Below are positions 3,601-56,748 of a stretch of 64,000 nucleotides of DNA, one piece after another. The position numbers and the translations under genes were made by a program. Every line of letters begins with the position of its first letter. Position 1 is the first letter of the stretch. The DNA is taken from contig NC_088297.1 of NCBI RefSeq assembly GCF_032854445.1, positions 8,791,375-8,855,374 on the forward strand. The letters are read 5' to 3'. The DNA comes from Liolophura sinensis. Lineage: Eukaryota; Mollusca; Polyplacophora; Chitonida; Chitonidae. The notes beneath the pieces were generated by a model. That model did no database searches and was not told where the DNA came from. It saw nothing but the letters and a program-made list of their open reading frames with translations.

Positions 3601-6600
3601 CACCTGGATAAAAGAAACACTAAACAGTTATCACCTGGATAAAAGAAACAAATTCATTTATATTCATTTGACCGATGTCTTACAAACAAAAACAAACAAA
3701 AGTATAAACGTGGTCACTTATTATCATTTCACAGGATCAAGTAAAGAGACACTGTACAGACTGAAGTCTTCCCACAGCAGCCCCAGTAGTAATCCTTGCG
3801 GTTAGAAGCTAACCACACGACTAAGTTACCGAATTTCACCTTAAGTTTAGCATTCGTCGAGATACATATTTTGCTCTGATTTTTTTTTTATTCTGACTGA
3901 CCCATGCACCTTAAGGGCCACTAATGAGGTTTTTTTTTTTCTTCTTGTGCAGTACAAAGGTAAAATTTCAATAACACAAACACTCAGTATACAGGTCAGG
4001 TGCTTCTTCAGATCTAGCCAGTTCATGCTGTGAATGGTCTCTAGAATTGGACTTGATTCTACAAGGGCTTTTAGTCAAAATTTAAAACTCTGTCACAGTG
4101 CTTTACTTTTCGGTAGTCCAAATTGAAATTTTGATACTTTTGTCTTTAGATAACATTCGTGGGACAGGGTTTTTCACTTTCAATGTGAATCCAGTTCTTG
4201 TCAAAATCTGCTACAGAGTCTGCTTTGATTCCCAGAAAAAGTCACATTTGAACTCTTTTTTTTTTTTTTTCACAATAAAATATACATGTACAATGTTTTG
4301 CCTTGTTAAAGAAATGAACGTAGAATTCCCAAAATTTGTTTTGCAATAAAACCTTTGGAGCAAGTGCTTTGTAATATTGGATAATCATATGCACTAGATT
4401 CCGATGGATACCTGAAGATTTAAGTCCAGAGTAAATATTTAGATTCTGGTGAAAAATGATGAAATGCTCCAAATTTTTATTTACTGGCCTCCAAAACAAG
4501 CTCTACAAACTGCATTTCCATTTTTTTTACTTAACGTATAAATGGCTTTTTGGAATGAAAAACTCACGTCAGTCTAATTTATGTGCTTTATTGTTCTTTT
4601 CTTTTATACTTCGTGCTTTCTGTAAGCTTGTAGTTCAAATCAAAGATGTGTTTTTACACCCCTTGGAACCGACTTATTTGGCCAAAATTAAAACATCTCT
4701 GTTGGGTCAACCCTATGGACCCTCCGAAAACAGATCCTATTCGACAGTTTTTATAAGGACTTTGATGAAATTTTTGTCTTTATTTCTCTCAATGATAATT
4801 TCTTTAAAATCCCTCTCCCATTCAAAATAAAAATGCTGCTTGCCGACCAATCCTATTTTGTGTGATATTCTGGTGTTACTGTAATTCTTCAACCTTTTCA
4901 CATGTATGTTTGCAAGATGTTTATTCATGAGCATTATTTTGCATAGACTGATAAAATTACACTCTTTACGAAGTCCTGAAATTGGTCAACCCAGCCGGTG
5001 TTCTTTTGAAAGTAAATTAAAAGGTGCATAAATCTGACTGAAAGTTGCTCTTTCACGTGCAAAAAGACTGAGGGATTAGGATAGTCCCATCCAAACTGTT
5101 TAGAAAACAAGGGTAGCCTTAGATGGAAAAAATGTCCCTTCAATGGCTCATGGCATTGGTAGGACTTTAACTTACCCTCATCGCCTTCTCCCCCTTCCCC
5201 AAAGGCGCTGACCTCCAGGTTGTGGGAGAGTGGCGAGTTGAAGTGATGGCTGTGTAAGTTACGTTTGGTGGACAAGTGCATGAGGCGGATTGTCTGGCCA
5301 CACTTTATAGGCACTCTGAAAAACAAACCCAGAGGCAAGTCAGGAAAAGAGGAACAGTTACTTCAGGTCTAAACCTCAAGCATATACATGTATTTATTTA
5401 TCTGACGTGTGATTAACAGCGTAATGAGTTGGATTCGAATTTTATCTGCTGATTTCAAAAACATCACCGGACAAAAGATAAAAGCAGAATTCAAGCAGAA
5501 CATTAAGCGTGGTAACATTTGAGGGTTGGGGGACTACATGGCCAAGGTGGTTAGCGTGCCACCGCAGCACAAGCACAGATGAGCCTTTCAACAGTGCCGT
5601 TGTTGTGAGTTCAGTCCAGCCTATGCTAGCTTCCTCTTTTGCTGCACATGCAAAGGTCTGCTAGTGATGGTTGTAGGTTTCCCCAGGGTTCTGTCAGGCT
5701 TCATCCCACTACAACCCTAGCTACCACTGTACAGGTGAAATATTCTTGGGTATGACATTGTAACCAATTTCGTACATTGTAAGAAATTTGCAGTGCACCA
5801 ATACCTCTTTAGCATGTCTTTTAAGATCACCCAGGAGCCAAATTTATCTTCTTCTCCACTTCTGCCTAATGCTTATTATAATGTACTTAGTAATAATAAA
5901 TTTCTGTTACAATGTACTCTATAATAACACATTTCTGTTACAATGTACTCTACAATAACACATTTCTTACTCAAATATAATTCACATATACAACGGAAAA
6001 TGGTTGCCAGTCTCATGGTGGGAGGAAATCAGGCAGAGCCCAGCATAACCAATAACCATTCCCACATTGCTGTCACTGGTAGACCTTCCCACGTCCAACC
6101 GGAGAGAAAGCCAGCAACATCTGTAATATTGTACTCATCACTATTACATGTCCATTACAATAATTCCACTATAACTACATGTGTGTTAGAGTGAGTGAGT
6201 GAGTGCTTGGGGTTTAATGTCGTACTCAACAATTTTTCAGTCATATGACGACGAAGGAATCATTAGGGTGCATGTACGTGTAATGTGCCTCCTTGTTGCA
6301 GGACAGATTTCCACCGCTCTTTTATTTAGTGCTGCTTTACTGAGACGACTTACCCAAGGCAAGTAAGCCGCCCCGCCCGACCCATTATACTGATATGGGT
6401 CAACCAGTCGTTGCACTATCCCCTTCATGCTGAACGCCAAGCAAGGAAGTTACAACTTCCTCTTTTACAGTCTTTGGTGTGACTCGATCAAGGATTGATC
6501 CTGAATCCACCAGTCCCGAAGCGGACGCTCTACCAACTGTGCTATCCGGGCCGGTATCAAGGATTGATCCTGGATCTACCGGTCCCGTGTGTTAGAGTGT

Positions 6601-15056: not shown

Positions 15057-17395
15057 TTTTGCGGCTGGCCATCTATGTGTGCAAGACAGGTTCTTCAATT
15101 GCGTAAAAAATATAACAGAGCGGATATAACGTCTGTGGTGCTATCTGAAGGGACTGTCACTCACGACTCCGATCTCGTGTCACCCGGGTGCTTGTTAAAG
15201 CTAGCCTATGCTCTGTAACAACAATGGTGCACTTATAAAAGATTGATTATCCTTGACCCAGCGTAAGACCTCGAAGAGACAGTCCATTTGATATTGCAAG
15301 TTTTCGGAATTATTCCGCTTTTTGTTGATTTGTTTCATTGACGGATCGCTAAACTCTGCGATCAACATATATAAGGCCTAGAAAATAAGTAAAATTATTT
15401 TTCGCTTGTTTTCTTTCTCAGCTTCCTTCCTCCTTATTTATTGTTTGACAAAATCACATTTAATTTTTATAACACCTAATCATCGCGATAAAATTCAATT
15501 TTCTACATGCACATGTAGGTCTATCGACTAATTATTAAAGTCAAATGAGCGTCTGTCGTGTCTTCCCTCACGCTTGCATACACGTGACGAGTTTGTCAGG
15601 TCACGTGATCATGGCTGTTTGAAGCCATGTCTTTTTTGGCCTACCTTCCTTTGTTCTTGTGACAACGGATTCTTCTCGCTCTCTTTGATATTGGTTTTTC
15701 GTCGTTTTAAAGAATGTAGGTATTCTTGCTGTTGAGAAATGGAGATGTTTTCCTGATGTTTGATTTTAGCCTGATCTTTGATTCGCTGCACATCTAAGCA
15801 CAGTGCAAAGACGAATCGAAAGCCCAGATCGTAAGACCTGCTCCTTTGGATTAAAGAGTACAGCTTACTATACAGATTCTTCTGTAATGTTTGTTGACGA
15901 GGCGTTTGAACATTTTGAACATCGAAACTCAACATATATTTCGACCCTAATCTAGGTTAATGGTAGATTGATGAATTAGCCATGTTGAGTATACATGAGT
16001 ATACATGAGTATATCGCAGCCATAAAATTAGTGTAAGATGATATGTTAGGTAAAGTACACTACAACACTGTGGAAAATATGATGGCCGGGTACATGTGTA
16101 TAATATTCTTTTTGTGGCATTGATTGCTTGATTGATTGCAAGCGTTTAACATATTTCTATTTGTCTGGATGATGGGTGGAGTAAAAAGGTGTGACCGGAG
16201 TAAGTCACTGACATTATATTCCGGCACTGTACCTGACAAACCTCGGTCATGACTTAAAACTTAGTCCAAATATGAGAAAGCTATTCGAAAAGGCGATCCC
16301 ATTCGTTGGTCAAGGACGGTTATAGCTAGCAAGTAACAGATCTTTAACCATATAAGCCAGCTGGTTGTTGATTTTTTTTATAATCTTTTACCTTTTCTAA
16401 CCTGTACAAAAAAGCTATAACGTGAAATATGTAGGCTGTTACCTCTATCCACAGAGACTGTGCTAAAGTGTTATATGTCACACCGTCTCAAATAATGTCA
16501 ATAAAAACATTCACTCGTTGACTTTTTTTATTTCTAAGGAGACTACAAAGGTTGTGAAACATAACTGGTGATAAATAAATTTCATTTGGTGTTTATTATG
16601 CAATTACAAAAGTTAAGTGGTTTTCTATTATTATATGGAACATATTACAAGAAAATGAACTGGGGTTACCTGTTTAACTCTCACCTTAAAACCAAAAAAT
16701 CTTCAGTTAAGTGGTTTTCAGCTTTAAAAAGCCAAAAAAAAAAAAATGGCGGGCAAATCAGAAGCAGACGTTAATTAAGCGTGTTAATTAGCTAGACACG
16801 ACATGTTGTATAACCGTGTAACGATCAGCAGCTCGCTCGCATGAGATCCAAGTACGTGGAGAAATTAATTCCTTTCTTAATGCACTAGTTGTTTATTACA
16901 TATAAATTCCGATACATTTACTATTTATAGTAGCCATGTATAGTAAAGGTTTTGTGCGCTTCAGCTCTTTTGAAAAACTTTCAGCTTGTTTTAGAGTAAA
17001 CGTTCATTTATTGTTTAGAATAAAGTTCCATGCATTTCCTAGTGTAAACTTTCAGCTACACCCAAAAATTAATCTGTTAATTTTAATAGAATGTATGTTG
17101 TCTGAGTGATGCCATGTTTCAAGATTAATTAAGTTCAGAAAAAATGGCGGGATGAAACCGAGCAGATCCCGAGGGAAACCCACAACCATCCTTAGGTTTC
17201 CAGCAGATAGTTCAGAGTACAGTTCCATGTATGTCATAGTGTAAAATTCCGGGTAAGTTCTGACCAAAAGTCATTATTACATGTCACCAGTGTACAGTTA
17301 CTCAGATGCCGTGTTGTCACGTTCAACAAACGATAATGTGGAAATAGTGTCAGATACCAGGCTTAGAATATACGTTCACGCAACGCAAAATCGCG
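15057..17395. other. Gene-free interval
   Basis: I see no supported gene. A 108-codon minus-strand open frame (15935-15609) has no recognisable domain, splice context or promoter. A diverged SINE1 core fragment lies at 17146-17212 (minus). A CACGTGAC/TCACGTGATC pair of E-box words lies near 15585 and 15600. Confidence 0.5.
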
Positions 17396-18425
17396 TTTCA
17401 TGCAGACACTCAGAGCATGCAGCAGAATCGCGGTTCTTGCAGACACTGAGAGCCTTCTGCAAAATCGCGGTTCTTGCAGACACTGAGAGCATGCAGCACA
17501 TTCGCGGTTCATGCAGACACTGAGTGCATGTAGCAGAATCGTGGCTCATGCAGACACTCAGAGCATGCAGCAGAATCGCGGTTCATGCAGACACTCAGAG
17601 CATGCAGCAGAATCGGGGCTCATGCAGACACTGAGAGCATGCAGCAGAATCGTGGCTCATGCAGACACTGAGAGCATGCAGCGGAATCGTGGCTCATGCA
17701 GACACAGAGAGCATGCAGCAGAATCGGGGCTCATGCAGACACTGAGAGCATGTAGCAGAATCGCGGTTCATGCAGATAATGAGAGCATGCAGCACATTCG
17801 CGGTTCTTGCATACACTGAGAGCATGCAACAGAGTCGCGGCTCATGCAGACACTGAGAGCATGCAGCAGAATCGCGGCTCATGCAGATACTGAGATCATG
17901 CAGCACATTCGCGGTTCTTGCATACACTGAGAGCATGCAACAGAGTCGCGGCTCATGCAGACACTGAGAGAATGCAACAGAATCGTGGCTTATGCAGACA
18001 CTGAGAGCATGCAGCAGAATCGCGGTTCATGCAGACACTGAGAGCATGCAGCAGAGTCGCGGTTCATGCAGACACTGAGAGCATGCAGCATAATCGCAGT
18101 TCATGCAGACACTGAGAGCATGCAGCAGAATCGTGGCTCATGCGGACACTGAGAGCATGCAGCATAATCGCGGTTCATGCAGACACTGAGAGCATACAGC
18201 AGAATCGCGGTTCTTGCAGACACTGAGAGCATGCAGCAGAATCGCGGTTCATGCAGAAACTGAGAGCATGCAGCAGAATCGTGGCTCGTGCAGACACAGA
18301 GAGCATGCAGCAGAATCGCGGTTCATGCAGACACTGAGAGCATGCAGCAGAATCGGGGCTCATGCAGACACTGAGAGCATGCAGCAGAATCGTGGCTCGT
18401 GCAGACACTGAGAGCATGCAGCATC
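17396..18425. repeat. 37-bp minisatellite, about 28 units
   Basis: The unit contains GCAGACACTGAGAGCATGC and AGCAGAATCGCGGTTC. The array runs about 1.03 kb with frequent CGCGGTTC/CGTGGCTC/CGGGGCTC alternation. The period is not a multiple of three, so open frames inside are shadows of the repeat. Every unit carries a GCATGC palindrome or its decayed form. Confidence 0.95.
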
Positions 18426-24907: not shown

Positions 24908-26349
24908 ATGACGTCCCATATCGTGGTGTCTGCCATTGTCGTGTTGCTGTGTGTCGTGTGTCTAACAGAAGGTGCCAAGCCGACACGTCGTCGGCGCCAG
25001 GCTGCCGCTTCACAATGGCCGGCCGCCCACGCCATTCCTACTGGCGCAGCCATGCCACCAACATACCAGAGATACGCCTTCGTTCCTGTGGACGCCTTAG
25101 GTAGACCCCAGATGGTCTACCCAGCAAACCCGTTACTACCACCTCAACCTTATCCCCCACAGGCTGTACCACAATTCCTGCCCGCACCAGCCCCTCCACC
25201 CCCCAGGCCAATCATCCTCCCGGCCCCCGCCCCACCCCGACGAATCATCGTGAGGGCACCACCCCCAGTTACACCACAAGTTGTTGTTGTTCCGGCGCCG
25301 CCACGTATCCTTTCTTGAGGCGCCATTGACATGTCACGTGATGAGTTTTGTCCTCTCTTCTTTGTCTTCTTTGACTTTCGTCTCGTCAGGTCACGTTATT
25401 TCACTTGTTGGGTTAGATATTTCATGAGTCGAAATTATTGATATCGCTCCATTACAACGTTTCTGGAGAAGGTAATAAGGTTAAACACTTACGTAATAAT
25501 GATCTCTTGGACGTAATTCTTAACGCTCCCCTTTGTTTAAGGGGCCTGGTATATATAACATATATGAACGTTGCATTTGATGCTCAGATTTCATGTCTTA
25601 TAGCAACAATTTTACAACGGTCTTTCAGGTTTCCTCTGCCAATAAAATTGACCGCCGTCGAGTATACAGATTAAAACTTTTCAGGGGGCCCTGCGTGGCC
25701 GAGGTGGTTAGCACGTCAGCGCGGCACAATCACCCAGAAGCCTATCACCAATGCGGTTGTTGCGAGGCCAAGTCCAGCTCACGCTAGCTTCCTTTCCGGC
25801 AGTACATGGGAAGGTCTGCAAGCAACCTGTTAATGGTCGCGGGTTTCCGCCGGGTTTTCTTCCCACAATTATACTGGCAGCCGTGGTATAAATGAAATAT
25901 CCTTGAGTACGACACAAATTAAATAAATTCATAAAACTGTTCAAACCAGTGTTAAACAATAGTCAAATAAATATATACATTTTATTTCAGACTTTATGTG
26001 CTTATTACCATTATCTACGTGATAAACGAGCGTCAGGTTTTCCAACCCTTAGTGGTATCGTGTCTGATTGACAGTTTTGGTCGTTGCGTTTTTTCTGTGT
26101 TAAGATAAGATATTACCATGAAGTAATTTTCACATTTTGAACATTTACTTTTCTTTCTAAATTTTCACGTTATGACATTCTCCTTAACTCGGGGGCACAG
26201 ACCCGGAATGCGGCACAATCGCCAAACCTGGAGAGTGCTGTTCTAGTTCCCTGACCTGCCCGGAAATGTTTCAGGTGGATGAAGAATCTCTGACATGCGC
26301 ACACAAGGGTCCTGCTGCCGTCTGCTGTATGCCAAATATCTGCGACTAA
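24908..26349 (+). CDS. Gene A: secreted proline-rich protein with C-terminal 8-Cys module
   Basis: Coding exons are 24908-25304 and 26201-26349, giving 181 residues. The ATG is the first codon after an acceptor (TTTGGCAG|ATG), which decides this start over an upstream one at 24866. Residues 1-22 or so form a signal peptide (IVVSAIVVLLCVVCLTEG). A polybasic PTRRRRQ follows, a likely proprotein-convertase site that would expose an N-terminal Gln. Residues about 33-132 are proline-rich, with PVDALGRPQMVYP and RRIIVRAPPP matching gene C. The last exon gives C-GTIAKPGE-CC-SSSLT-C-x12-C-x8-CC-MPNI-C-D. The intron between is U12-type (see separate entry). A poly(A) signal AATAAA lies at 26429. I do not recognise the family; an extracellular structural or defence role is inferred from the layout. 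Confidence 0.87.
25305..26200 (+). other. U12-type (minor spliceosome) intron of gene A
   Basis: Donor C|GTATCCTTTC at 25305 matches the U12 consensus fully. Branch region TTCTCCTTAACT (26178-26189) places its adenosine 13 nt before the CAG acceptor ending at 26200. The intron is phase 1 and 896 nt long. It holds a SINE1 (25684-25937). Confidence 0.9.
25684..25937 (+). mobile_element. SINE1, near-full copy inside gene A U12 intron
   Basis: Head GGCCGAGGTGGTTAGCACG, B box region, and tail CTTGAGTACGACACAAATTA with AAATAAATTC end. Confidence 0.85.
26201..26349 (+). CDS. Gene A last exon: eight-cysteine module
   Basis: 49 codons after a split His codon. Cysteine spacing is 8-0-5-12-8-0-4, identical to genes B and C. 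The word GTIA-PGECC is shared with C, and CCMPNICD closes both proteins. Confidence 0.9.
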
Positions 26350-26434: not shown

Positions 26435-28106
26435 GCTGAGATTACTAATATTAAAACATACAGTTTGAAAAAAAAAAATATATATATATATATTTATACG
26501 TTCCCATGGTTACTTAAAGTAAAGCTCTGTGATTCATGGATAACAGCCAATAATATTCGTCATTTGGGGTCACAATGGCGGGGTGTTATATATTTTGCAC
26601 TTTCGGTGATATTAAAATACCGAATGCAAGAACTGAATGTTAGATCCGTTTGAGAATAAAATATTTACTTGAACATCAGTGTTTGGAGTTTTCATTAGGC
26701 GTTTGAGCCGCAGATTTTCAAAGACACGCCTATTGGGGACTGATTGTTGTTGAAGGTCTTATTCCAGATATTTTTAATTATACGATGGTGGGCATTCTCC
26801 TAGGTGGAGTGAACCGGAGTGCCAAGGGTAAACCACCGACTTTTGGCAAGTCGCTGACGAACTTTCCCGCACGCATCGCACAACTCTGCACGTCATATCG
26901 GTGCAAGACAAATGGTTTTCAACGAAGGAAGGGTTGCGCAGATGACCCATACGAGAGATGTTGACGACTAAGCTTTTATGCCCCAATGCTCTACAAACAT
27001 AGAAAGCGGATAATCTGTCCAAGAATGGGATTAACCCTGCACCATGTGTATCTCTTGATACAGTTTGATTGGTTTGGCGATTTCCGAGAAAAAGATGATC
27101 ATTGTAAGTGTGTAACGGTGCATGCATGACTGTTCAAAGGTGAGTTCTAATCAGCACTATGAAAATTGTAGTTCCTCATTTTGTGCTAATTACACGTTTG
27201 AATTTTAATTGCTAGATTTAATTGCATAAACTAAATATTTAATTTGGGTACTTCCCCCCAGAATGTTGAAAGAACTAAACGACGGTCTCTGTGTATGCTC
27301 GTGAGTCTGAAATGCGCGTGACTGGAAGTGCGGATATTCAAACTCTGTATTTTCTTAAAGACCATTTCAGACACAAACATGAATAAAAATGGAGAATCTT
27401 TCCCACTTTAAGTTCTTCCAGACCAAGCTGTGTAGTTTTATTGATAATTCATGCCTTTGTAATAACGTCTATAGGTTCAGCTGGTGACATGTTACTCATG
27501 CATTGCCAGAGATAAATGATCAGTTCTGCTTTCACCTCAAAACACTTGTGTTCAACTGCTACACAACAACTTATGTTGTTTTCATTCAACACAGAAATGT
27601 GTTCCCTCAACACAAACATGTGTTAAATAATAATGTAAACATTTGTATTAAAAAAATAATAAAACACAAAATTTTGTTGAACCCAAATAATTTATGCACT
27701 ACAACAAAAACTTGTGTATTTTGCAACAAATATTATGTATAACATCCAACACATCTTGTGTTCAATTATTGCACCACAAGACGTTGTGTTTATTCAACAC
27801 TAGATACAGTTCCAATATGACATAAGGCTTTTGTTGGAAAGAACACAAGTTTGTTTTTCATGTAACACAGGTGGTTTTTGTGTGTAGATCCGAGACTCCA
27901 TTGTGCGATTGTTAAATGTGCCTGATTCACATGGTTGAATACAACAGTCAGGGAAGTTTCGAGTTGGAACTCTTTTGTCGTTAAAGATAAAAACAGTTCT
28001 ACTGTATCACGTGGCTTGTGAAAAATGTTAGGCAATTTTTGTTGACATTAATGTGCCAATCATCAATCACAGTTTAACAGAGCTACACATCACTCATCTT
28101 TCCTTC
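26435..28106. other. Intergenic between genes A and B
   Basis: Contains an A/TA microsatellite (26468-26494) and a diverged SINE-like element (about 26775-26955, with AACCACCGACTTTTGGCAAG). There is a palindrome-rich stretch at 27530-27880. No coding exon is supported. Confidence 0.6.
27530..27880. repeat. AT-rich stretch of repeated AACACA/TGTGTT imperfect palindromes
   Basis: Short inverted pairs recur, for example AACACATCTTGTGTT, CCACAAGACGTTGTGTTT and ACACAAAATTTTGTTG. It may be a decayed hairpin element; no clear ends are visible. Confidence 0.5.
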
Positions 28107-28372
28107 AGGGGGGGGGGGGGCCTCCGTCGGTTAGCGCGCTAGCGCAGCATAATGACCCAGAAGCCTCCCACCAATGCGGTCGCTGTAGGTTCAAGTCCAG
28201 CTTATGCTGGCTTCCTCTCCGGCCGTAAGTGGGAAGGTCTTTCAGCAACCTGCGGATGGTCGTGGGTTTCCCCAGGGCTGTGCCCGGTTTCCTCCTACCA
28301 TAATGCTGGCCGCCGTCCTATAAGTGAAATATTCTTGAGTACGGCGTAAAACACCAATCAAATAAATAAATC
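28107..28372 (+). mobile_element. SINE1, full copy
   Basis: Begins at a run of 12 G's followed by CCTCCGTCGGTTAGCGCG and runs to GAGTACGGCGTAAAACACC and AAATAAATAAAT. Little diverged. Confidence 0.92.
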
Positions 28373-29252: not shown

Positions 29253-29407
29253 CTATTTACACGTGTTAGCCGCGCAACATAGGGTATCTTGTCCCAGAGA
29301 AAGACACGCTCCAGTCTCGTCCTCGATCTGGGATGACTCCACGCAAGATTTGGGAAAAGCGCAGCACTGGCCGTGTCTTGTCACGGGCCCGCACTTTTTG
29401 GTACTTG
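29253..29407 (-). CDS. Gene B last exon: eight-cysteine module
   Basis: 51 codons including stop, after a split Ala codon completed from exon 2. Apart from the cysteines it keeps only IEDET near the middle and a Gly before the second CC pair. It is the most diverged long member in sequence but not in spacing. Confidence 0.85.
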
Positions 29408-31534
29408 CTGGAAAAAAAACTAAACAGGTTAATGGGTTTAATCTAAGTGTGACTGAATAAAATATAAAATTTGAGATTATTACAAAATGCTAAATTTTTT
29501 GTTTCTTTGGTCTTGTTTTTTTTTTCAAGTTCAGCGTCAATTTTTGCATATTTATACAGCAGGCCTATAATCATACGTCTATCGCTATTTATTTATTTAT
29601 TTACTTATTTATTTATCTATTCCATTGGTGTTTTACCCGTACTGAAGAATATTTCACTTATACGACGCCGACCAGCATTATGGTGGGAGGAAACCACATC
29701 TATCAAGACCATAGTTAGACTGGATGCCAGTTTCAAAGAAAGGTAAGAAGTCCTGCTAAAGGGAAATGCTGCTTTCGTAGACATATTGCGAAATACCGAT
29801 ACTGTAGATACTTTTGCTAGTTTTCCATGTTACAGAGACTTACGGGCAGTAATTCTAATATCGTATTCGAGGCACATATGTGCGACGATAATCACGAGCA
29901 TACAAACACGCACAATTCTTCTTCGTGATACGATGTACGTACATTGATAAGGGCTGAAAATCGCCTTCAACATTGTGTGAGTCAGGTGACCACGAAAATG
30001 TTGTCATACGTACAGGTATAGTTCTGGTCGTATTGGGTTATTTGTTTATTTATTTATTTGATTGCTGTTTTACGCCGTACTCAAGAATATTTCACTTATA
30101 CGACGGCGGCCACCATTATGGTGGGTGGAAACTGGGTACAGCCCGAGGGAAACCCACGACCATCCGCAGGTTGCTGTCAGACCTTCCCACTTACGGCCGG
30201 AGAGGAAGCCAGCATGAACTGGACTTGAACTCACAGCGACTGCATTGGTGAGAGACTCCTAGGTCACTACGCTGCGCTAGCGCGCTAACCAACTGAGCCA
30301 CTGTGGCCTCTCTGGGTCGTATTGGGATGTGCCATGTCCAACAACCCAGACATGATGTCCGCACATCCTAATGTACTAATGTTGAGTACTATAGTCTTAG
30401 ATATGCCAATGGTTCTCTTACCAAATAGTCAGAACTTCAGTGATAAGACAGTAAGGAATAAATGAAAGATTGGGGTTTAGCGCCATATTGGAAGGATTAC
30501 AGTGACATCGCTGCGAGAACGAATAATAGTAAATCAGTCAAAAGTAGAAAGCATCGAAAAGACTTACCTGGCTGTGGAGGTGTTGGTCTCTGACTGGATA
30601 CGGGCATCTGCGGTGTTCCACTTTGTCCAGTGGCGTAGGATGCTGGCACTGAAACACGATCATCTACGGCTCGGCTGAGTGATCGTGGGAATTCGAGTGC
30701 TGGGAGATATGCCCCAAGGACTGGATAACCCTGCGCGATAGGACCCCACGGAACCGCATGTGACACAGGAAGCGTTCTTGGAACTTGGTAATACCGGACA
30801 CCAATAGATGGCAACTGTTGCTGTTGTCGTGACTGTTGTTGTTGTGATTGTTGTTCTTGGGGAATGGGATAAAACTGCTGTTGTTGCCTGTAAAAATATT
30901 GTTGGTGTTGTTGGTGGTGAGTAAGTTGTTGTTGTGGGTAGTACGTGTGCCGTTGGGGCTTCTGATGTGGCTGTGGCTGACGGCGCTGCTGTTGATTTGG
31001 CTGGAGCTGTTGTTGATTTGGCTGGAGCTGTTGTTGATTTGGCTGGAGCTGCTGATGTGGCTGTGGCTGATGGTGCTGCTGTTGCTGTGGCTGATGGTGC
31101 TGCTGTTGCTGTGGCTGATGGTGCTGCTGTTGCTGCTGCTGTAGCTGTGGCTGGAGCTGAGCAACACTTTGTGGACGTCGAGTGTAATGCTGTTGTTGTT
31201 GTTTCTGAGGCTGATGTAGTGGCCACTGTTGTTGGGGTGACTTCGCTGCCTTAGGCTGCTGTTTCTGAGGGACCGCAGTGAAGCGGTTGTTTTGAGATGG
31301 CATAGCCTGACCCTCTATCTGCCTCTGGTATTGACTAACTTGATATTGTAGTTCCACAGGTGGAGACATTAATCTCTGTATGAAGTCCGCCGGAAGTTGT
31401 AAGTTGACAGCGCTCCCTGTAGGCGACGTTTGTGAATTCACGGAATGTCTTTGGTAATCCACATTTTGGACTTGGGCGTTCACAGCTACACACAACAACA
31501 ACAACACTAGACCTGGATTGACATATAGCTTCAT
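29253..31534 (-). CDS. Gene B: secreted glutamine-rich protein with C-terminal 8-Cys module
   Basis: Coding exons are 31534-30568 and 29407-29253, giving 373 residues. The ATG directly follows acceptor TTTCAG. Residues 1-20 are a signal peptide (LVLLLLCVAVNA). Residues about 100-240 are Gln/Pro/His-rich, with 24-nt coding repeats (HHQPQQQQ and QLQPNQQQ, three times each). A less biased segment follows (IGVRYYQVPRTLPVSH, VPWGPIAQGYPVLGAYLP). The last exon gives C-GPVTRHGQ-CC-AFPKS-C-x12-C-x8-CC-AANT-C-K, with spacing 8-0-5-12-8-0-4, as in A and C. The intron (30567-29408, 1160 nt, phase 1) is U2-type: G|GTAAGTC and a T-run before CCAG. A poly(A) signal (AATAAA, minus) lies at 29046-29041. Q-rich secreted proteins occur among molluscan matrix proteins; function here is unknown. 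Confidence 0.83.
29586..29697 (-). mobile_element. SINE1, tail half, in gene B intron
   Basis: TTTATTTATTTATTTACTT, GGTGTTTTACCCGTACTG, ATTTCACTTATACGACGCC; truncated after the GGTGGGAGGAAACC core word. Confidence 0.85.
30041..30313 (-). mobile_element. SINE1, full copy in gene B intron
   Basis: Complete from a TTTATTTATTTATTTG end through TTTTACGCCGTACTCAAG to the head GCGCGCTAACCAACTGAGCC and GGCCTC. Same orientation as gene B. Confidence 0.95.
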
Positions 31535-36208: not shown

Positions 36209-36360
36209 TTAGTCACAGATGTTTGGCATGCAGCAAACGGCTTGGGGTCCCAAGTAAGCGCATGCATTGGTTTCGTCATCCACGCGCAGATTTTCTGGGC
36301 ATGTGATGGGTGATGCGCAGCACTCTCCAGGGCTGGCGATTGTTCCGCACTCAGGAGGAG
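36209..36360 (-). CDS. Gene C last exon: eight-cysteine module
   Basis: 50 codons after a split Pro codon, starting PPPECGTIASPGECC. Spacing is 8-0-5-12-8-0-4 and the C-terminus CCMPNICD is identical to gene A. Confidence 0.9.
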
Positions 36361-37930
36361 CTTAATTCCGCAGTTAAGGAGAATTGTCTTGAAAATGATG
36401 TTGACAGAAATGCAGTTATGTAGCAGCAAACGAAAACAAAGGTGAGAACTTATTTCAACAGCATTGCAGAATGAGTTAAAAGCTCATTTATATGATTAAT
36501 ATGTTATTTGCTCGACACTTCTTTGATTTAACTTTGATTAATCAACCGACTACATAATTTCAATGGGTTTTATGAAGTGATGACGTGTTATAAACGGATT
36601 CCAGGCAAGCTTAAATACAGGTCATATTTATCTGCAAGAATAAAATTGATGTTAGATTGCTAGGGAACGGTTGATCAAAAGCGTGGTAGTAGTTAAGCTG
36701 AATTGGTTTTGAAGTAGGATAAGACTTATAATATACTATACGGCAACTGCACCCTGATACCTAAGACGATTAAAACTTCCAGAACCTCAGTCAAACGTTA
36801 CATCCACGGAGGTTCAACTGTATTCCACAAAGGAAAGCTAATCTTGATTTAAAAATGAAATTTTCCTTACAGAATACCAAGAATACAGCAATAGTATTGA
36901 TTTCAATGAAAACAACCCATGGCCTCCGTGGAGCCTCTCACCAACGCGGTCGCTGTGAGTTCGAGTCCAGCTCATGCTGGCTTCCTCTCTGGCCGTACGC
37001 GGGAAAGTTTGTCAACAACCTACGAATGGTAGTGGGTTTCCCCCTGACGCTGCCCGCTTCCCTCCCACTATAATGCTACTATTATTATATAATAATAAAC
37101 CGTCGATATAAGTGACATATTCTTGAGAATGACGCAAATCAAATCAAATTAATAAATAAATGTAATATCCTGTGTTAAGGATGGCACACGATGTAAATAT
37201 TTGATGTTCTAGAAATCAGGCATATTGCCACACCCACGAATGCGGTCGCTGTGAGTTCAAGCTCTGTGAGCTCATGCTGGCTTCCTATCCGGCCGTACGT
37301 GAGAAGGTCTTGCAACAACGTGCAGATGGTCGTGGGTTTCCCCTGGGCTCTGACCGGTTTCCTCCCACCATATTGCTGGCCGCCGTCGTATAAGTGAAAT
37401 ATTCTTGAGTACGGCGTAAAAAACCAATCAAATAAATAAAATAAATACATATTGTACCATATTGGACTCATATAAATACCTAACGTTTTCTCAAGAGTAA
37501 TATTTCAATTTTTTCTTAAAAGGATACGAGGAGGGGGCGGTGGAATGACTGCGGGGAGAGGTGGAGGGGGAGGAAGCACTCTCTGATAAACAACTCTGGG
37601 AGTAGGAGGGGGAGGTGGTGGAGGTGGTGCTGGCAAGTACCTAGGAGCCACATATGGAGGCCTGGGGAGTGGGGCGGCCGGCTGGTAAGAGTATACGTAA
37701 TAAGGGGTCTGCGAGTATCCCGGTGGTGGCAGTGGCAGTGGAGGATACACGGGAGCTCCTGGAGGCAGCATGTCCACAGGCAGCATGGCGATCTGCTGGG
37801 GCCGGGCCGGCGGTGCTGGGTTAGGATACGTGGGTGGGGCTTGGCGGCGGCGGAGTGATTTGGCCGCACGTGACTCTACCCCGGAGGTCAATGCCATTAA
37901 AGCGATACACACTGTTACAGCGGTCCACAT
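36209..37930 (-). CDS. Gene C: secreted proline-rich protein with C-terminal 8-Cys module
   Basis: Coding exons are 37930-37528 and 36360-36209, giving 184 residues. The ATG at 37930 follows acceptor TTTCCCCAG directly. I reject the longer open frame reaching 38065 because it crosses that acceptor. A signal peptide (WTAVTVCIALMALTSG) is followed by a polybasic SLRRRQAP site. The region about 34-134 is Pro/Tyr-rich (PVDMLPPGAPVYP, PYYVYSYQPAAP, PRVVYQRVLPPPP). The last exon gives C-GTIASPGE-CC-ASPIT-C-x12-C-x8-CC-MPNI-C-D. It is closest to gene A in the module and to gene D in the proline-rich part. A poly(A) signal lies at 35913-35908 (minus). Biological role unknown; secretion is well supported. 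Confidence 0.87.
36919..37162 (+). mobile_element. SINE1 in gene C intron, A-box region deleted
   Basis: GGCCTCCGTGG jumps straight to AGCCTCTCACCAACGCGGTC, so the A box is missing. The tail carries a TATTATATAATAATA insertion before TATAAGTGACATATTCTTG. Confidence 0.85.
37227..37446 (+). mobile_element. SINE1, 5'-truncated, in gene C intron
   Basis: Starts at ACGAATGCGGTCGCTGTGAG and runs to GAGTACGGCGTAAAAAACC and an AAATAAATAAAATAAAT end. Confidence 0.88.
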
Positions 37931-43861: not shown

Positions 43862-44229
43862 TCCTTGCATATCAAACAAAACACGCTTGTTCAATCAACA
43901 ATAGATGTCATCTAAATTTTTATGCAGACCAAACAGAAATAATAAAAAACCATCGGAGCAAATGACAGAAAGGTTACAATCTTCAAATATAACCAATCAT
44001 CGCAAGCGATTGGTTGAAGCAATTAATCACGACGCTGAAAGGGATCTTTTGGCTGGTAAGTTCAAGGTTATTGGTCGCAGATCTTTGGCATGCAGCAGAC
44101 GGCAACGGCACTTTCCGGTTATGGCGACGCATTGGTGGCTTTCATCCTCAACTTGTACTGGCTCAGGACACGTGACCGGTGATGGACAGCACTCTCCAGG
44201 ATTTGTGATTGTACCACACTCAGGAGGTG

Positions 44230-44767
44230 CTAAAGACTGGAGTTAAGGAGAATACCTTAACACAACAGTAGGCTTTAGGCTCTATGACATACATGAAATA
44301 AATAACAAAATTACGATTGCAATGTTACCTTAATAACAAGTTTTGCACTCCAGCCAATATTTTACCAAAGGTGTTAAGAGGGAATCATTTTATATAAGAT
44401 GTATAGAAAAGACGGTATTCAAAGGAGCTAGCTACTTGCAAATCTAACAGCGCTGAGCACAGCATTAAAGTAACTCTAGGCCAGTGACGTTTAATAAATT
44501 GCAGCTACCCCCTACTGGATTTTAACGTAATTATGCCATTGTGTAAGAGTACGTGTAAGTCGCTGCTATTTACACATATGCATGTATAAGAAAATCTAGA
44601 AAAAAGTTCAACTGAGGTAAACTGACAAGAATCCAGATTTGAGCATTTGCCAGCCATCAGACTATCGTCGTGGTATGGTTGTACTGTCCATACTGTAGTC
44701 TCTTGTATTACTTAAATATCAAAAGTAGATCTGATTCATGTACGATGTACGACACCAGAAAGGATAC
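44230..44767 (-). other. U12-type intron of gene D
   Basis: Donor C|GTATCCTTTC, branch region TTCTCCTTAACTCC, adenosine 13 nt before the TAG acceptor at 44230. 538 nt, holding a dispersed-repeat copy (44465-44705). Confidence 0.88.
44465..44705 (+). repeat. Unclassified dispersed repeat, copy 3 (in gene D U12 intron)
   Basis: AACTCTAGGCCAGTGACG, TCAACTGAGGTAAACTGAC and GTACTGTCCATACTGTAGTC match copies 2 and 5. Confidence 0.6.
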
Positions 44768-45772
44768 GTGGAGGTGGTTGTTGCTGAACAACAACAGGCG
44801 GCGGTCTCACAGCTGGAGGGGGTCTCTGGTAGATAACCCGTCGGGAGGAGGTAGGAGGGCGTGCAGATATCTTGGCGGTGCCGGAGCCCGCGGGGGTGGA
44901 GCGACCCGGCTGATATGGAGGATAGAACGGGGCCTGAGAGGGTATCCTGCCGGAGCCTGAGGATAGGCGGGATATACTGGGGCTCCTGGCGGAAGCACGT
45001 CAACTGCCATCATGGACGGCTTGCTGGGGACGGCCGGCGGTGGGGCGTAAGGTAGGGCGGGGTTAGGAGCGTACACAAGAGCCTGGAGGGGCTGAAGCCG
45101 CACGTGCGAGCGCAGGTGCTTGGGCCTTGTGAAGCCACCCTGAGGCTGAGACTCGCCAACACAACACACAGAAAGGTCACGGCGGACATCTGAAGACAGA
45201 AAACAAGGGAGATAATTGGTTCATTGTAAAGACATGGGATATATTATTCTTCCATCCAGGTGCCAGACCCTTGTCATATTCAAAGCATCAGGGCAAAGCA
45301 TCGATCAATCTTAAAATGGATAAAAAGATCCCGACATAACAACTGAAACCTATAGGCCTATGCCTCGTACACTAAACATTAGTGGACAAAAAAGTGGATC
45401 AAATACTTTGCCATTCGCAAAGTTCATTTACAAAAAACCATACCATTTAATTAACAGAAAGAAAACGTACCAGACTAAGTAACATATTTATATGTTTGTT
45501 GTTTAATGCAATAGCTTCAGTACCAGAGGTAAACAATCAATCTTTGGCATGTTACTAAACGACCGTTTCTCACGTTTGAATCACCATGCGCACCATATTG
45601 GTGGTAGACTGCGCAGACGATCACACGCCGACAGTCACACAATGCCTCTTTGACATCTTGTTATCCCAGGTCCCGTGAAGAGTGGAAGTGGGAGAACAAG
45701 TAAATAAAGGGTTATTATAGCATACGCTTGTAATACTGCGTGGGTGATTTTACAGAACTTCAATTTACAGAC

Positions 45773-46984: not shown

Positions 46985-48262
46985 CTGACCATCCCTCAGC
47001 CCATAAGAGAAAAGGCAAAAAAAAAAAAAAGAATGGCCTGGAAATAGAAAAAGGCATATATAATGTTGTACATGTGTATATATAGAAACGTTTTCGTTTA
47101 AAATTGCCATGTTTTTAATTGCTTTAGTGTAATTTTACACTGTCTAGTCGCGTAGTTTTATCGTCTATTCTAGATGCGTGACAAAAATTGTGATACCTGC
47201 GTATTTATGTTCAGTAGGTCAGTGGATATAGTACTATCCACTAGGGACACGTGTACTAATGAGCCCGTGGTGAGATAGCACACAGGTGTGGTATTAATTA
47301 AACCTTGCAGGTAGGTATATCGCCGGTGAGAATTTATTCTGTGTCAAGTTACGACCCACTGACCTTAAAAATGATTTCACGAAAATACACATGGTTCGTT
47401 TAAAATTCGACTCGAGTTATGGATACCACGAGAGAAAAAAAAACGCATTAACAGTGAATTAGAATATATTTTTTTCAATACGATGCTGAACTGTTTTCTG
47501 GTCTCCAATCTTTTAAATGAAATGTGTCCAGTTTTATCGGTTGAAAATTTTTATTTGTGTTCGATGTCTGGCATTGGTCACCCGACACCACAGTCGCTGA
47601 CTTCAGAAGTGAAAAACAGAGTACGAGATGTAAAGGATATTTCACTGAGTCACCAACGCTGTGTTTCACGGGAACAAAGCCTCTCAAGTCGATTTCATGT
47701 AGATCCGGAGATTTCACCTTGAAGATTTTGTGAATGACATATACAACTTCAGGGGTTTCTGTGTTTATGAAACCGATGCTCATTATATATCTGAACCGCA
47801 TCGATTCACATTATCCTCTAAATAACTGGCTTAATTTGATCACATATCCCTAATCACTGATCAGTTCTAATCAAGGTTTGTTAATTTGTTTTCCACTAAA
47901 AATACCGAAAATTGCTTATTTCTATTTCTGCTAAAAACCCTTATAATTTCAATACCGATCGTGATGTAATCATTAGCATTTATTCCCTTAACATGGAAGG
48001 ATCGTTCATTTTAATCATTTCGCTAATGGATTCTGTAAGATGACTGACTGATTTCTACTTTTTATGTGCGTTCCACAGCAGGGTGAATAATAGAAAGTCT
48101 CATAAATGTGCTGAGTCCTTCCTCGAAGTTGACATTCGACATTTGACCTTCAACCTACGCTATACGTGGCTGTAAACAAGGCTGAGATGGAAATACAGCT
48201 TCTCTCATTGTTTTTCAATTTCAAACTGGACATAGTTTTATATGTAATACCCATGCGATTTA
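46985..48262. other. Gene-free interval
   Basis: Contains poly-A runs and a 108-codon minus-strand open frame (47801-47475) without a recognisable domain or splice context. No feature is supported. Confidence 0.5.
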
Positions 48263-49085
48263 AGTAACCTTTGAGTTACACCATACCTAAGTTGTCTTTG
48301 TATTCAGAAAGATTTAAATCACTTCTGAGTCACGCCATACCTAAGTTGTCTTTGTATTCAGAAAGATTTAAATCACTTTTGAGTCACGCCATACCTAAGT
48401 TGTCTTTGTATTCAGAAAGATTTAAATCACTTTTGAGTCACAACATACCTAAGTTGTCTTTGTATTCAGAAAGACTTAAACCACTTTTGAGTCACACCAT
48501 ACCTAAGTTTTTAAATCAATTTAAATCATTTTTGAGTCACACCATACCTAAATTGTCTTCATATTTCGGACAATTTAAATCATTTTTGAGTCACTTCATA
48601 CCTAAGTTGTCTTTGTATTCAGAAATATTTAGGCCACTTTTAAGTCACAACATACCTAAGTTGTCTTTGTATTCAGGACAATTTAAATCACTTTTGAGTC
48701 ACGCCATACCTAAGTTGTCTTTGTATTCAGAAAGATTTAAATCACTTCTGAGTCACGCCATACCTAAGTTGTCTTTGTATTCAGAAAGATTTAAATCACT
48801 TCTGAGTCACAACATACCTAAGTTGTCTTTGTATTTAGAAAGACTTAAACCACTTTTGAGTCACGCCATACCTAAGTTGTCTTTGTATTTCGGAGAATTT
48901 AAATCATTTTTGAGTCATCTCACGCCATACCGAAGTTGTCTTTGTATTCAGGATAATTTAAATCACTTTTGAGTCACGCCATACCTAAGTTGTCTTTGTA
49001 TTCAGGACAATGTAGATCTGTTTTGAGTTACGTCATCTATAAGTTGTCTTTGTATTCAGAACGATTCAAATCACTTAAAAAATCA
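48263..49085 (+). repeat. 54-bp minisatellite, about 15 units, open in one frame
   Basis: The unit contains CATACCTAAGTTGTCTTTG, TATTCAGAAAGATTTAAATC and ACTTTTGAGTCAC. Since 54 is a multiple of three, a 234-codon frame stays open (18-residue repeat IPKLSLYSERFKSLLSH with A, N, T or F first). It has no ATG start in frame and is broken at about 48918 by a length change. Differences between units fall at all codon positions, so I see no sign of selection on a protein. Confidence 0.9.
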
Positions 49086-49920: not shown

Positions 49921-50645
49921 CCCAATCATACCTACATCAGCCCACCAGACGTGACACCCGACCCATTATGCTGACACCTGCCTACCAGAGGTGACACCTC
50001 ACCCATTATGCTGACAACAGCCCACCAGATGTGACACCCCAACCAGTCACAATATGCTGACACTAGCCCACCATACATGACACCCCCACCCATTATGCTG
50101 ACACCAGCCTGCCAGAGGTGACACCCTACCCATTCACAATATGCTGACCCTAGCCTACCAGACGTGACATCCCACCCATTATGCTGACACCAGCCCACCA
50201 GACGTGACACCCCACCCATTATGCTGACACCAGTCCAACAAGATGTCACACGTCACCCAGTCACAGTATGCCGATACCAGCCCACCAGACGTGACACCCT
50301 CACCCATTATGCTGACAACAGCCCACCAGACGTGACACCCCAACCAGTCACAATATGCTGACACTAGCCCACCATACGTGACACCCCCGCCTATTATGCT
50401 GACACCAGCCTACCAGAGGTGACACCCTACCCATTCACAATATGCTGACACTAGCCTACCAGACGTGACACCCCCACCCATTATGCTGACACCAGTCCAA
50501 CAAGACGTCACACGTCACCCAGTCACAGTATGCCGATACCAGCCCACCAGACGTGACCCCCCTCCTGTCACACTATGCCAGTAAAATCCCAGCAGATGTC
50601 ACACCTCACAGTCACAGTATGCACCAGCCAACCAGAAGTGACACC
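49921..50645. repeat. Tandem array of about 40-bp units derived from SINE3
   Basis: Two alternating unit types: one with CACCCATTATGCTGACACC, the other with CAACCAGTCACAATATGCTG, each joined to CAGCCCACCAGACGTGACACC. The same words occur once inside the SINE3 body at 22.4 kb. Blocks near 50005-50190 and 50304-50490 repeat in the same order, about 299 bp apart (higher-order repeat). Confidence 0.9.
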
Positions 50646-53355: not shown

Positions 53356-53794
53356 TCATGGTAATTTATTATAAAAAATACAATGTTGTACTTAGTACGT
53401 ATCGTCTATATTAAATACGGCGATGCACATGTAAAAGTGCGTAGACACGGATGGGTATGTCTTTTCAGTCTATTTTTCGAGTGCACAATAATATACGTGA
53501 TAATATTTTTGATTCTGAATGACATTTAATACATGCAGACCCTATTTATTCTTTTGATTGATGTTGGTTCTTGATTCAGTATTTTTCGAAACAGGTATCT
53601 TTGGGTGTCCGAGACCTGTTTAAAATGCATGGTGTCTTCAAGGCCATTTTGTGGTCAATACGTTGTCTATATAGCGGATTCTGATTTATTCATCTATTAT
53701 ATTGTCGTCTATCCTCATACACAAGACTTTTCACTTATGCGATGGCGGTAAGTTATATGGGTGGAGAAAATCTGAGTGCTCTTGGTAAACCACC

Positions 53795-54444: not shown

Positions 54445-56748
54445 ATGGCAACAAAGCTGGTGCTTGGTATTTTCCTGCTGGTCGCCATTTTCAGCGTGTG
54501 TACCATGGCGTGTATCCTTTCTTAAATTCCTAGTTAATTGTTATTTATTTTCTTTTTTAATTTATGTGTAAGGTAATGTACATACAGGTGTCACGATATT
54601 AAATATATGCAAACTGCACGAATCTAATTTCAAAACTACAAATTATAATGATGTATATTTCTAAAAACGCAGGAAAATAAAACCGTGAAAGCTGCATACC
54701 CATTGTTGTTTCAAGCTCAAGATAACGTCAATTTTTTTCTCAAGTAGATTGTACATATTGATTTCATGTACACCAAGACACAAAGGGCTGGCTGTGCAAA
54801 AATCACTGTTGGTTACCTCACAATGGCCAGTATTTAAAGGAGAAGAAAATATTAAAAATGATGCCAAAATCAGACGAAAGAGCGTAAAAACTTATTTACA
54901 AATATGGTCTTTAATATTTTTTTTCGAATTTTTCTTTCAGGAGAAAAAAGTATTTAAAAAGATTTTTGTGTGGTAGGTATCTGGGGCCACTTCTCGTTAT
55001 ATATCGTCTTTGTATAATAATGCTATATATATATGGATATCAGTTTATTTCAATGTAAATTTGATGTTTATATCCATAGACATCAATTTAAAGCGAATTA
55101 TGATAATAATTTATCAATACATTAAAATATAAATATGATGAAAATCCAGGTTGAACACATTTGTTACCTGAAAAGACCAAATTCTAGTGCAGATGTCTAT
55201 TAAACATGTGTTAAATCCTCATTTACGCAATTATTATGCAAAGACAATACATACCAAGAAGTGGGCCCAAATACCCACCAGACAAAAATTATTTTCAAGA
55301 GTTTTTTTCTCTGTAAAGATCGATCGAAAAAAAAAATATTGAAGACGTTTACAACTTTTTGCGTTCTGTCATCTGACCTTTATGTATTTTTTTTATTTTT
55401 TCTCCACCTTTAAGCTAAAATGACCTCAACTTTCACACTTAAAGTACAATATTCCATTCAATCCTCTCCGGCCGCATGTGGGAAGGTCTGCAACAATGGA
55501 TGGTCGTGACCTTCCCCCGGGCTCTACCCGGTTTCCGCCCATCATAATGCTGGCCTCCGCAGTATAAGTGAAATATTCTTGATTACGGGCTAAAACACCA
55601 AGTATATCATTAAATTCAACTCAAAACTGTCTCTTAACTGCACAAATGTTTGATTACGACGTTAAACTCAATCAAATCAAATCAAAATTGCACAAAGTCT
55701 AATTCGTGATCGTAACTTAGTCTGCATGACTTGAGACATTCACATTCCTAACCCACAGATTGTGCTATAGACCACGAATCTGCTATGCAAATTGTGAAAG
55801 AGAGGACATCAAAAGAACCAATCATATGGAGAGTTTAAAGGTCCGGACTTTGTTGCGGGATGAGAGTAGGAGCGCTTGTAATCTCTTCGTGGGGGGCCTC
55901 CGTGGCTCAGTTGGTTAGCGCCCTAGCGCAGCGCAATGACCCAGGAGTCTCTCTTCGTTTCGGAGATAGTCTCTGGGCTGCTCTCATCTCTGAAGATTCT
56001 ACACCCGCTCGAATGTTATGTTTCTTGGTGTCGATTTGGTTCGGAACGCCTGAGACACAGACCAAAACACACACGTAAATACAAACCAAAACCTATAAGT
56101 ATATACATGTATATTAAATGCAAGTGCACTTGATTTAGGATCCTATCCAGCTTAGCCAGTTTGTTAACTTATGTTTCTATGTTACTGAAGTGACCACCAG
56201 TTTTGATGGAATCCGACGGCAAAAGATTAAAATGAAAGAATAAATGAATGAGGTCTGCATTTTCGTACACTTTTGACGATGCGATATGCTATGTGGAGGA
56301 AAGGATATTGCCGAAACAAAAGTGGTAATTCTAGACCAGTGACGTCTGATAAAAAGCAAGTAACATCACTTTTACCTAATTCTACTTCAGTCATGGTGGT
56401 TAGGAGGTGGAATTTGCTAGGTCTGCTAAACTGACGAGGGGCCGGATTTTTATCGGTTACATATGACCAATTACCAACACAGTCGTAGTAACTCTGGCTT
56501 TACACCTTATACTGTAGGTCCTTTTATACTTCCACCTTTACCGCTTTAAATCGCATTAAATATTGTAAAATGTCAAATAATCCTTGACCTTGCCCCCAGA
56601 CCGATGTGGAGATCCCATGAACCCGGGTGTCTGTTGCTCCCCATGGGACTGTCGCTGGCCGCTGGATGAGACCACTGAGCATTGCGAGTGGTACGGTGGG
56701 GTATGCTGCGCGGAGGGATATTGCGCCGAAGGAATGGACTATAAATAG
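54445..56748 (+). CDS. Gene E: short secreted 8-Cys peptide precursor
   Basis: Coding exons are 54445-54511 and 56600-56748, giving 71 residues. The acceptor TTTTGCAG lies 11 nt before the ATG. Exon 2 is only a signal peptide (TKLVLGIFLLVAIFSVCTMA). The rest is a bare module starting near YRCGDPMNPGVCC, with spacing C-x8-CC-x4-C-x10-C-x6-CC-x4-C and a short acidic tail (AEGMDYK). It lacks the low-complexity region of A-D and the polybasic site. The intron is U12-type, phase 1. A poly(A) signal AATAAA lies at 57041. The mature part, about 49 residues, is acidic rather than cationic and Trp-containing. It could be a small disulfide-rich defence, signalling or inhibitor peptide, or the ancestral form of the module; nothing here decides. 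Confidence 0.8.
55465..55606 (+). mobile_element. SINE1, 5'-truncated, in gene E U12 intron
   Basis: CTCTCCGGCCGCATGTGGG through CTTGATTACGGGCTAAAACA. Confidence 0.85.
55893..55957 (+). mobile_element. SINE1 head-only fragment in gene E U12 intron
   Basis: GGCCTCCGTGGCTCAGTTGG to GACCCAGGAGTCTCTC, with nothing of the core or tail. A 3'-truncated SINE is unusual for target-primed retroposition. Confidence 0.85.
56322..56525 (+). repeat. Unclassified dispersed repeat, copy 5 (in gene E U12 intron)
   Basis: GGTAATTCTAGACCAGTGAC, TTTACCTAATTCTACTTC and GCTTTACACCTTATACTGTAG match copies 2-4. It ends 75 nt before the cysteine exon. Confidence 0.65.
56600..56748 (+). CDS. Gene E last exon: eight-cysteine module (compact variant)
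   Basis: 49 codons after a split Tyr codon. Three inter-cysteine loops are shorter than in A-C (4, 10 and 6 instead of 5, 12 and 8). First loop (8) and last loop (4) are unchanged. Confidence 0.82.

What the first reader, a model, noticed from the sequence alone, without database searches (positions are those of the whole stretch)
25305..26200. U12-type introns conserved across four paralogs of a fast-evolving gene cluster
The phase-1 introns of A, C, D and E all start GTATCCTTT and carry TCCTTAAC or TCCTTGAC 12-13 nt before the acceptor, both hallmarks of minor-spliceosome introns. U12 introns are rare and typically sit in old housekeeping genes. Finding one multiplied by tandem gene duplication in lineage-specific secreted genes, at the module boundary, is unusual and makes this family's output depend on the minor spliceosome.
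Basis: partly seen in the sequence, partly recalled or inferred. Interest (0 to 1): 0.9.

Follow-up and report, generated by a model that had tools for sequence, protein, structure and literature searches.

The report
Minor-spliceosome introns in chiton secreted-protein genes
Four of five neighbouring chiton genes for small secreted cysteine-rich proteins share an intron with the marks of the rare second splicing machine, while two relatives have an ordinary intron at the same place.

Summary
Introns A (25305-26200), C (37527-36361), D (44767-44230) and E (54512-56599) begin GTATCCTTT and carry TCCTTRAC with the branch A 12-13 nt before AG. All four exact GTATCCTTT in the window pair with such a branch site; 200 shuffles give 0.015 pairs on average, maximum 1, and 200 kb of flank gives none. 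The donor and branch words are kept in introns that are otherwise unalike. The genome is that of the chiton Liolophura sinensis and holds good U12 snRNA genes. U11, U4atac and U6atac could not be searched: the machine stayed busy.

The claim that "this family" depends on the minor spliceosome is too broad. Paralog B, in the same cluster, has a U2-type intron (CAG|GTAAGT...T8CCAG) at the same place and phase, and a sixth member, F, on another chromosome looks U2-type too. D is frame-broken. Only A, C and E are intact with U12-type introns. Minor introns multiplied by gene duplication are a known pattern (ion channels; CRTC, PROX, ERICH). Less usual is the host: small secreted proline-/cysteine-rich proteins without a relative found here, and two intron types at one position.

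The parts
24908..25304 (+). Gene A coding exon 1: signal peptide, RRRR basic site, proline-rich region
   Evidence: an AG stands directly before the ATG, suggesting a 5'UTR intron (not tested)
25305..26200 (+). Gene A U12-type intron, 896 nt, phase 1; donor 25305-25313 GTATCCTTT, branch word 26181-26188 TCCTTAAC
26201..26349 (+). Gene A exon 2: 8-cysteine domain and stop
30568..31534 (-). Gene B exon 1: signal peptide and glutamine-rich region
29408..30567 (-). Gene B U2-type intron, phase 1: CAG|GTAAGT ... TTTTTTTTCCAG, at the position homologous to the U12-type introns
   Evidence: U1 match 9/9
29253..29407 (-). Gene B exon 2: 8-cysteine domain and stop
37528..37930 (-). Gene C exon 1: signal peptide, RRR site, proline-rich region
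36361..37527 (-). Gene C U12-type intron, 1167 nt, phase 1; donor 37527-37519, branch word 36380-36373 TCCTTAAC
36209..36360 (-). Gene C exon 2: 8-cysteine domain and stop
44768..45189 (-). Gene D exon 1, frame-broken relative to A and C
44230..44767 (-). Gene D U12-type intron, 538 nt; donor 44767-44759, branch word 44249-44242 TCCTTAAC; signals intact although the gene is broken
44068..44229 (-). Gene D exon 2, 8-cysteine domain with a frame break
54445..54511 (+). Gene E exon 1: signal peptide only
54512..56599 (+). Gene E U12-type intron, 2088 nt, phase 1; donor 54512-54520, branch word 56581-56588 TCCTTGAC
56600..56748 (+). Gene E exon 2: 8-cysteine domain and stop

Best explanation
A small family of secreted proteins in the chiton Liolophura sinensis (signal peptide, in most members a proline- or glutamine-rich part, C-terminal 8-cysteine domain) carries a phase-1 intron just before the cysteine exon. 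In A, C, D and E this is a U12-type GT-AG intron, most likely removed by the minor spliceosome: U11 and then U6atac at GTATCCTTT, U12 at TCCTTRAC. The intron was most likely present in the common ancestor of these genes and was multiplied with them by duplication; in B and F it was most likely converted to the U2 type, through gain of a -1 G, a more U1-like donor and a pyrimidine-rich acceptor. Shown: the signals, their conservation against a diverged background, the frame, the U2-type introns in B and F, and U12 snRNA genes in the assembly. Inferred: actual splicing, presence of U11, U4atac and U6atac, and the direction of the type change.
For: Consensus donor and branch in 4 of 4 with 12-13 nt spacing, far beyond chance. 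Donor columns 1-9 are identical in all four introns (9 of 9) against 0 of 31 for columns 10-40; the branch word is identical in 7 of 8 columns against 3 of 30 just upstream. A and C cysteine exons differ with dS about 1.1, so the signals have outlasted heavy change at silent sites. U1 match of the donors is 4-5 of 9 against 9 of 9 in B. The -1 base is C, C, C, T, where PMC7367187 (passages) reports avoidance of A and G, and an excess of U, in U12-type GT-AG introns. A and C have acceptor ends without a pyrimidine tract. U12 snRNA: 5 matches, 4 over the cut-off, 3 at 126.9-132.1 bits; those three carry the branch-pairing stretch GAGTAAGGA, a weaker one carries AAGTAAGGA, and the weakest (L005) gave no AGTAAGGA. 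PMC10639083 reports relative minor-intron enrichment in molluscs (passage).
Against: No RNA junctions were seen. U11, U4atac and U6atac were not searched successfully. D and E acceptor ends are fairly pyrimidine-rich (8 of 10). The polarity of the U12/U2 difference is not settled: the six-member tree needs 2 changes in its best form, no branch reaches the 95/80 mark, and its one partly supported fork (90/90) joins B (U2) with D (U12). A possible relic U12 branch in B is no better than about 1 in 10 control acceptors. The genome search with the C domain missed E, so more members may exist.
Confidence: 0.85

Rival explanations
1. The U12-type introns arose inside this family: an ancestral U2-type intron (still seen in B and F) changed to U12 type, or cryptic U12 sites were activated, before or during the duplications.
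For: B and F are U2-type at the same place and phase; outside the trio A, C, D, F is the closest member to it (identity 0.49-0.50); no older relative was found with the means at hand. One U2-to-U12 conversion is reported in flies (PMC2831892, abstract and passages).
Against: E, the most divergent member, is U12-type as well, so under many rootings either an ancestral U12 intron or two gains are needed. Conversion is assumed to run almost only from minor to major (PMC10639083 section 27).
Confidence: 0.15
2. GTATCCTTT and TCCTTRAC are sequence relics, and the introns are in fact spliced by the major spliceosome at these or nearby sites.
For: GT-AG ends are compatible with both machines; D and E have pyrimidine-rich acceptor ends; no RNA data.
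Against: Donors lack a -1 G and have a poor U1 match; the full 9-mer and nearly the full branch word are kept while the rest of the intron has diverged.
Confidence: 0.05
3. The motif match is chance or a shared repeat inserted in all four introns.
For: Introns A, C and E contain SINE-like stretches (by eye).
Against: Identity among the four is nearly confined to the splice words at the exon edges; shuffles give 0.015 pairs on average and flanks none.
Confidence: 0.01

Closest known systems
Duplicated gene families with inherited U12-type introns: voltage-gated sodium and calcium channel alpha subunits, and the younger CRTC, PROX and ERICH families (PMC6865273, passages)
   Same: An ancestral minor intron multiplied by gene duplication and kept in paralogues.
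   Different: Here the genes are small, secreted, low-complexity and cysteine-rich, in a 32-kb cluster, and two members have a U2-type intron at the site.
U12-to-U2 converted introns (PMC2831892, 87 clusters in U12DB with both types; passages)
   Same: Same codon position and phase, U12-type in some genes and U2-type in others, GT-AG subtype.
   Different: Those clusters group orthologous introns, mostly between species; here the two types sit in paralogues of one genome.
Conotoxin precursor genes (PMC3862624, passages)
   Same: Secreted molluscan peptides; exons roughly match signal, pro-region and mature part; intron 1 is phase 1 in all but one superfamily.
   Different: Three coding exons; intron 2, before the mature part, is mostly phase 2. 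The paper calls the junctions typical GT/AG and the term U12 does not occur in it. No sequence relation was found here (one sub-threshold Mu-conotoxin match of 8 residues in B).
Hydrophobins (C-CC-C-C-CC-C order, recalled)
   Same: Order of cysteines.
   Different: The only sequence link is a profile hit at E = 0.77 to 1r2m, not significant. Treated as coincidence.

Membership tests
U12-type (minor) GT-AG intron | Extended donor RTATCCTT(T) | tested here: met
   4 of 4 GTATCCTTT; ATATCCTT and TCCTTAAC are quoted as the U12 signals in PMC2831892; GTATCC donors of the GT-AG subtype are tabled in PMC7367187
U12-type (minor) GT-AG intron | Branch word TCCTTRAC close to the acceptor | tested here: met
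   4 of 4, branch A 12-13 nt from the acceptor G
U12-type (minor) GT-AG intron | No good U1 donor and little pyrimidine tract | tested here: inconclusive
   U1 match 4-5 of 9 in all four; tract absent in A and C but 8 of 10 pyrimidines in D and E
U12-type (minor) GT-AG intron | Phase other than 0 and -1 base not A/G (tendencies) | tested here: met
   Phase 1 in A, C and E by translation and in D by the homologous reading of exon 2; -1 is C, C, C, T
U12-type (minor) GT-AG intron | Genome encodes U12 snRNA | tested here: met
   RF00007: 5 matches, 4 over cut-off; the three strongest have the branch-pairing stretch
U12-type (minor) GT-AG intron | Genome encodes U11, U4atac and U6atac | not tested
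   Each request came back as busy: RF00548 many times, RF00618 once, RF00619
U12-type (minor) GT-AG intron | Spliced by the minor spliceosome in RNA | not testable with these tools
   No reads held; RNA-seq of five tissues exists (PMC11068029, passages)
Minor-intron-rich gene family by duplication | Paralogues share the minor intron at one position and phase | tested here: met
   A, C, D, E of six members found; B and F share position and phase with U2-type introns
Lineage-specific secreted family | No homologue outside the lineage | tested here: inconclusive
   No significant hit in Pfam, PDB or the protein set, but no other animal genome was searchable

The most novel reading that the evidence does not exclude
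The U12-type intron was gained within this young secreted family, by change of a U2-type intron (as still present in B and F) or activation of cryptic U12 sites, and was then multiplied by tandem duplication: a rare, recent birth of minor introns outside old genes, with both states preserved side by side in one genome.
Probability: 0.14. Interest if true: 0.82.

Novelty: new member of a known kind. Interest (0 to 1): 0.5.

Why it matters
Minor introns are thought to sit mostly in old genes and to be lost or turned into major introns, hardly ever gained. A small, secreted, repeatedly duplicated family with both intron types at one position gives a compact natural series in which age, polarity and cost of the two intron types can be tested across chiton species. 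It also links some secreted proteins of unknown role to minor-spliceosome activity, away from the usual housekeeping targets.

Tried and rejected
Protein relatives: Pfam scan of A, C, E and the B domain gave two sub-threshold matches (E to CDP-OH_P_tran_2, B to Mu-conotoxin), neither over its cut-off; the PDB by sequence gave none for A; the large protein set gave none for the C domain and none for E (this set may hold few animals). Profile of four cysteine domains against the PDB: 2 hits at E up to 5, hydrophobin II at 0.77 and 1ylo at 0.94, both rejected. Structure prediction of the cysteine domain from four sequences: pLDDT 44.5, not usable, so no fold search was run. A relic U12 branch in intron B (CCATTAAC, 2 mismatches): 45 of 428 control acceptors (10.5%) do as well or better, rejected as evidence. 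Matches on contig C13 (5 of 10) are a tandem repeat; the cysteine pattern is not seen in the printed frames. Tree of six domains: not resolved. More members in 100 kb on either side: no cysteine pattern; tblastn gave only weak hits there, E 0.041 or worse. Literature searches list 20, 20, 20, 10 and 12 papers of 617, 829, 33, 175 and 38; among those listed I recognised none, by title and abstract start, as describing minor introns in a tandem cluster of secreted cysteine-rich genes. This is far from exhaustive. Position weight matrices were not applied; strict words and controls were used instead.

Errors of mine that were put right: one search used wrong starts for A and E and wrong splice ends for B; one search corrected A, C and E, but its B donor is one base off (30567 instead of 30568), so its B C-terminus is out of frame. 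B exon 2 was read in the right frame; the full B protein was not recomputed. In one search exon 2 of A was read out of frame.

Full report
Where this is. The window is part of contig C3 (27,489,247 bases) of a 609,464,459-base assembly of 632 contigs. Contig lengths C1 96,433,062, C3 27,489,247, C7 60,359,117 and C12 31,077,156 equal scaffolds 1, 11, 3 and 8 in the tables of PMC11068029, which also has 632 scaffolds (passages). Two numbers differ slightly: the total there is 609,495,693, and C13 (30,099,635) equals no listed scaffold, the nearest being scaffold 9 with 30,102,928; a lightly trimmed release would explain this. That paper named the chiton Liolophura japonica; its correction, PMC12441733 (main text), renames it L. 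sinensis. The identification rests on these numbers.

The observation. The four introns are present as described. Each starts GTATCCTTT and ends in AG, with TCCTTAAC (A, C, D) or TCCTTGAC (E) whose branch A lies 13, 13, 13 and 12 nt before the acceptor G. Lengths are 896, 1167, 538 and 2088 nt. With these junctions A, C and E give open proteins of 181, 184 and 71 residues, and the intron is phase 1, directly before a C-CC-C-C-CC-C domain.

Chance. Both strands of the window hold 4 GTATCCTTT and 5 branch words with AG 10-15 nt on; all 4 donors are paired within 3 kb. In 200 dinucleotide shuffles the mean number of pairs is 0.015 and the largest 1. Four ATATCCTTT also occur and are not at these junctions. 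Two 100-kb flanks hold 2 GTATCCTTT, 3 branch sites and no pair within 5 kb. With looser patterns the window gives 14 pairs, the left flank 0 and the right flank 2, so the strict words do the discriminating.

Conservation. Among the four introns, donor columns 1-9 are identical in 9 of 9 and columns 10-40 in 0 of 31. The branch word is identical in 7 of 8 columns, the 30 columns before it in 3 of 30, the 6 after in 0 of 6. The cysteine exons of A and C differ by dN 0.24 and dS 1.14 over 48 codons; against B silent sites are saturated. So the signals are kept in introns that have otherwise lost visible similarity, as expected if they are used.

The family. Five members lie in about 32 kb and on both strands. 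In 100 kb on either side no further cysteine pattern was found, and tblastn gave only weak hits, E 0.041 or worse. A search of the whole genome with the C domain gave 10 matches at E up to 10: C, A, D, B, one new gene F on C7 (51% identity, E 8e-7), and five in a repeat array on C13. The search did not return E, so distant members may be missed; a search with E never got an answer. F has the same plan: an AG directly before the ATG, signal peptide, Q/P-rich part, phase-1 intron of 2760 nt, cysteine exon, 339 residues (the junctions are my reading of the DNA). An AG directly before the ATG is also seen in A, B, C and D, and 11 nt before it in E, which suggests a shared 5'UTR intron; this was not tested.

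Two intron types at one place. B has CAG|GTAAGT...TTTTTTTTCCAG (U1 match 9 of 9) and F has TGG|GTAATT...TGTTGTTTCAG (6 of 9, no TCCTTRAY in the intron), both phase 1 before the same domain. The four U12-type donors match U1 in 4-5 of 9 positions and have C, C, C, T at -1, where B and F have G. [quoted passage not shown] D has frame breaks in both exons: tblastn pieces of A and C fall in different frames. Thus of six members found, A, C and E are intact with a U12-type intron, D is broken with its U12 signals intact, B and F are U2-type.

Machinery. U12 snRNA (RF00007) gives 5 matches, 4 over the cut-off; three score 126.9-132.1 bits (two on C1, one on C12), the other two 54 and 52.2. The three strong copies contain ATGCCTTAAACTAATGAGTAAGGAAAATAA at the 5' end; the weakest match shows no AGTAAGGA. 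Simple duplex energies between this stretch and the four branch regions are -10.8, -7.7, -11.3 and -6.3 kcal/mol (A, C, D, E), against -4.2 for the B stretch; there was no shuffled control. U11, U4atac and U6atac could not be searched.

How it got there. PMC10639083 (abstract, section 27 and passages) reports that functional biases of minor-intron genes are largely explained by their greater age, that molluscs are relatively enriched in minor introns, and that conversion is assumed to run almost only from minor to major. PMC2831892 (passages) lists 87 intron clusters with both types and one clear U2-to-U12 change. PMC6865273 (passages) lists 59 human minor-intron genes that do not trace to the last eukaryotic ancestor, among them members of the CRTC, PROX and ERICH families. 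On this background an ancestral U12-type intron with conversion in B and F is the best reading. The tree cannot decide: no inner branch reaches the 95/80 mark, one fork (B with D, 90/90) runs against a clean split by intron type, and U12 and U2 as two sides of one branch appear in 4% of bootstrap trees; E, B and F are long branches.

What the proteins do is not known. Signal peptide, basic RRR(R) site in A and C, low-complexity middle part and a disulphide-type domain point to a secreted, perhaps processed, matrix, mucus or defence protein; this is inference from composition only (signal peptides were judged by eye). Pfam, PDB and the protein set gave nothing significant, and the structure model is not usable.

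Verdict. The interpretation needs trimming: intron type is mixed in the family, D is broken, and spread of a minor intron by gene duplication has precedents. The open and more interesting question is whether the U12-type intron is ancestral or was born in this family, which outgroup chitons can settle.

Noticed in passing
L001-L005 (G000:C1:65318678-65336263 and C12:21412562-21412712): U12 snRNA genes: two near-identical strong copies and one weaker copy within about 2 kb on C1, a fourth weak match about 15 kb further on, and a separate strong but diverged copy on C12.
   Followed up: partly
window 44068-45189: Gene D is frame-broken in both coding exons yet keeps perfect U12 splice words, which would fit a recent loss of the reading frame or assembly errors.
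   Followed up: partly
window 29253-31534 and G000:C7:3798853-3802587: The two U2-type members (B, F) have glutamine-rich middle parts, the U12-type A and C proline-rich ones; E has none. Intron type and middle-part composition go together in the few members known.
   Followed up: no
window 704-3650, 17385-18423, 48257-49076, 49934-50645: Long tandem arrays with units of 31, 37, 54 and about 46 bases; the 54-base array overlaps a 234-residue open frame.
   Followed up: no
L038 (G000:C13:9366000-9375999): A tandem array with long open frames on both strands (673 and 491 residues), with NPNCQVNPNSCPENLTPEEENNSDFYLTAQ-like units on one strand.
   Followed up: no
window 25690-25920, 28100-28370, 30070-30310, 37230-37430, 53780-53990: SINE-like copies with an AATAAATAAA-type tail recur in the window, some inside the introns and in both directions (seen by eye; no repeat search was run on them).
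   Followed up: no
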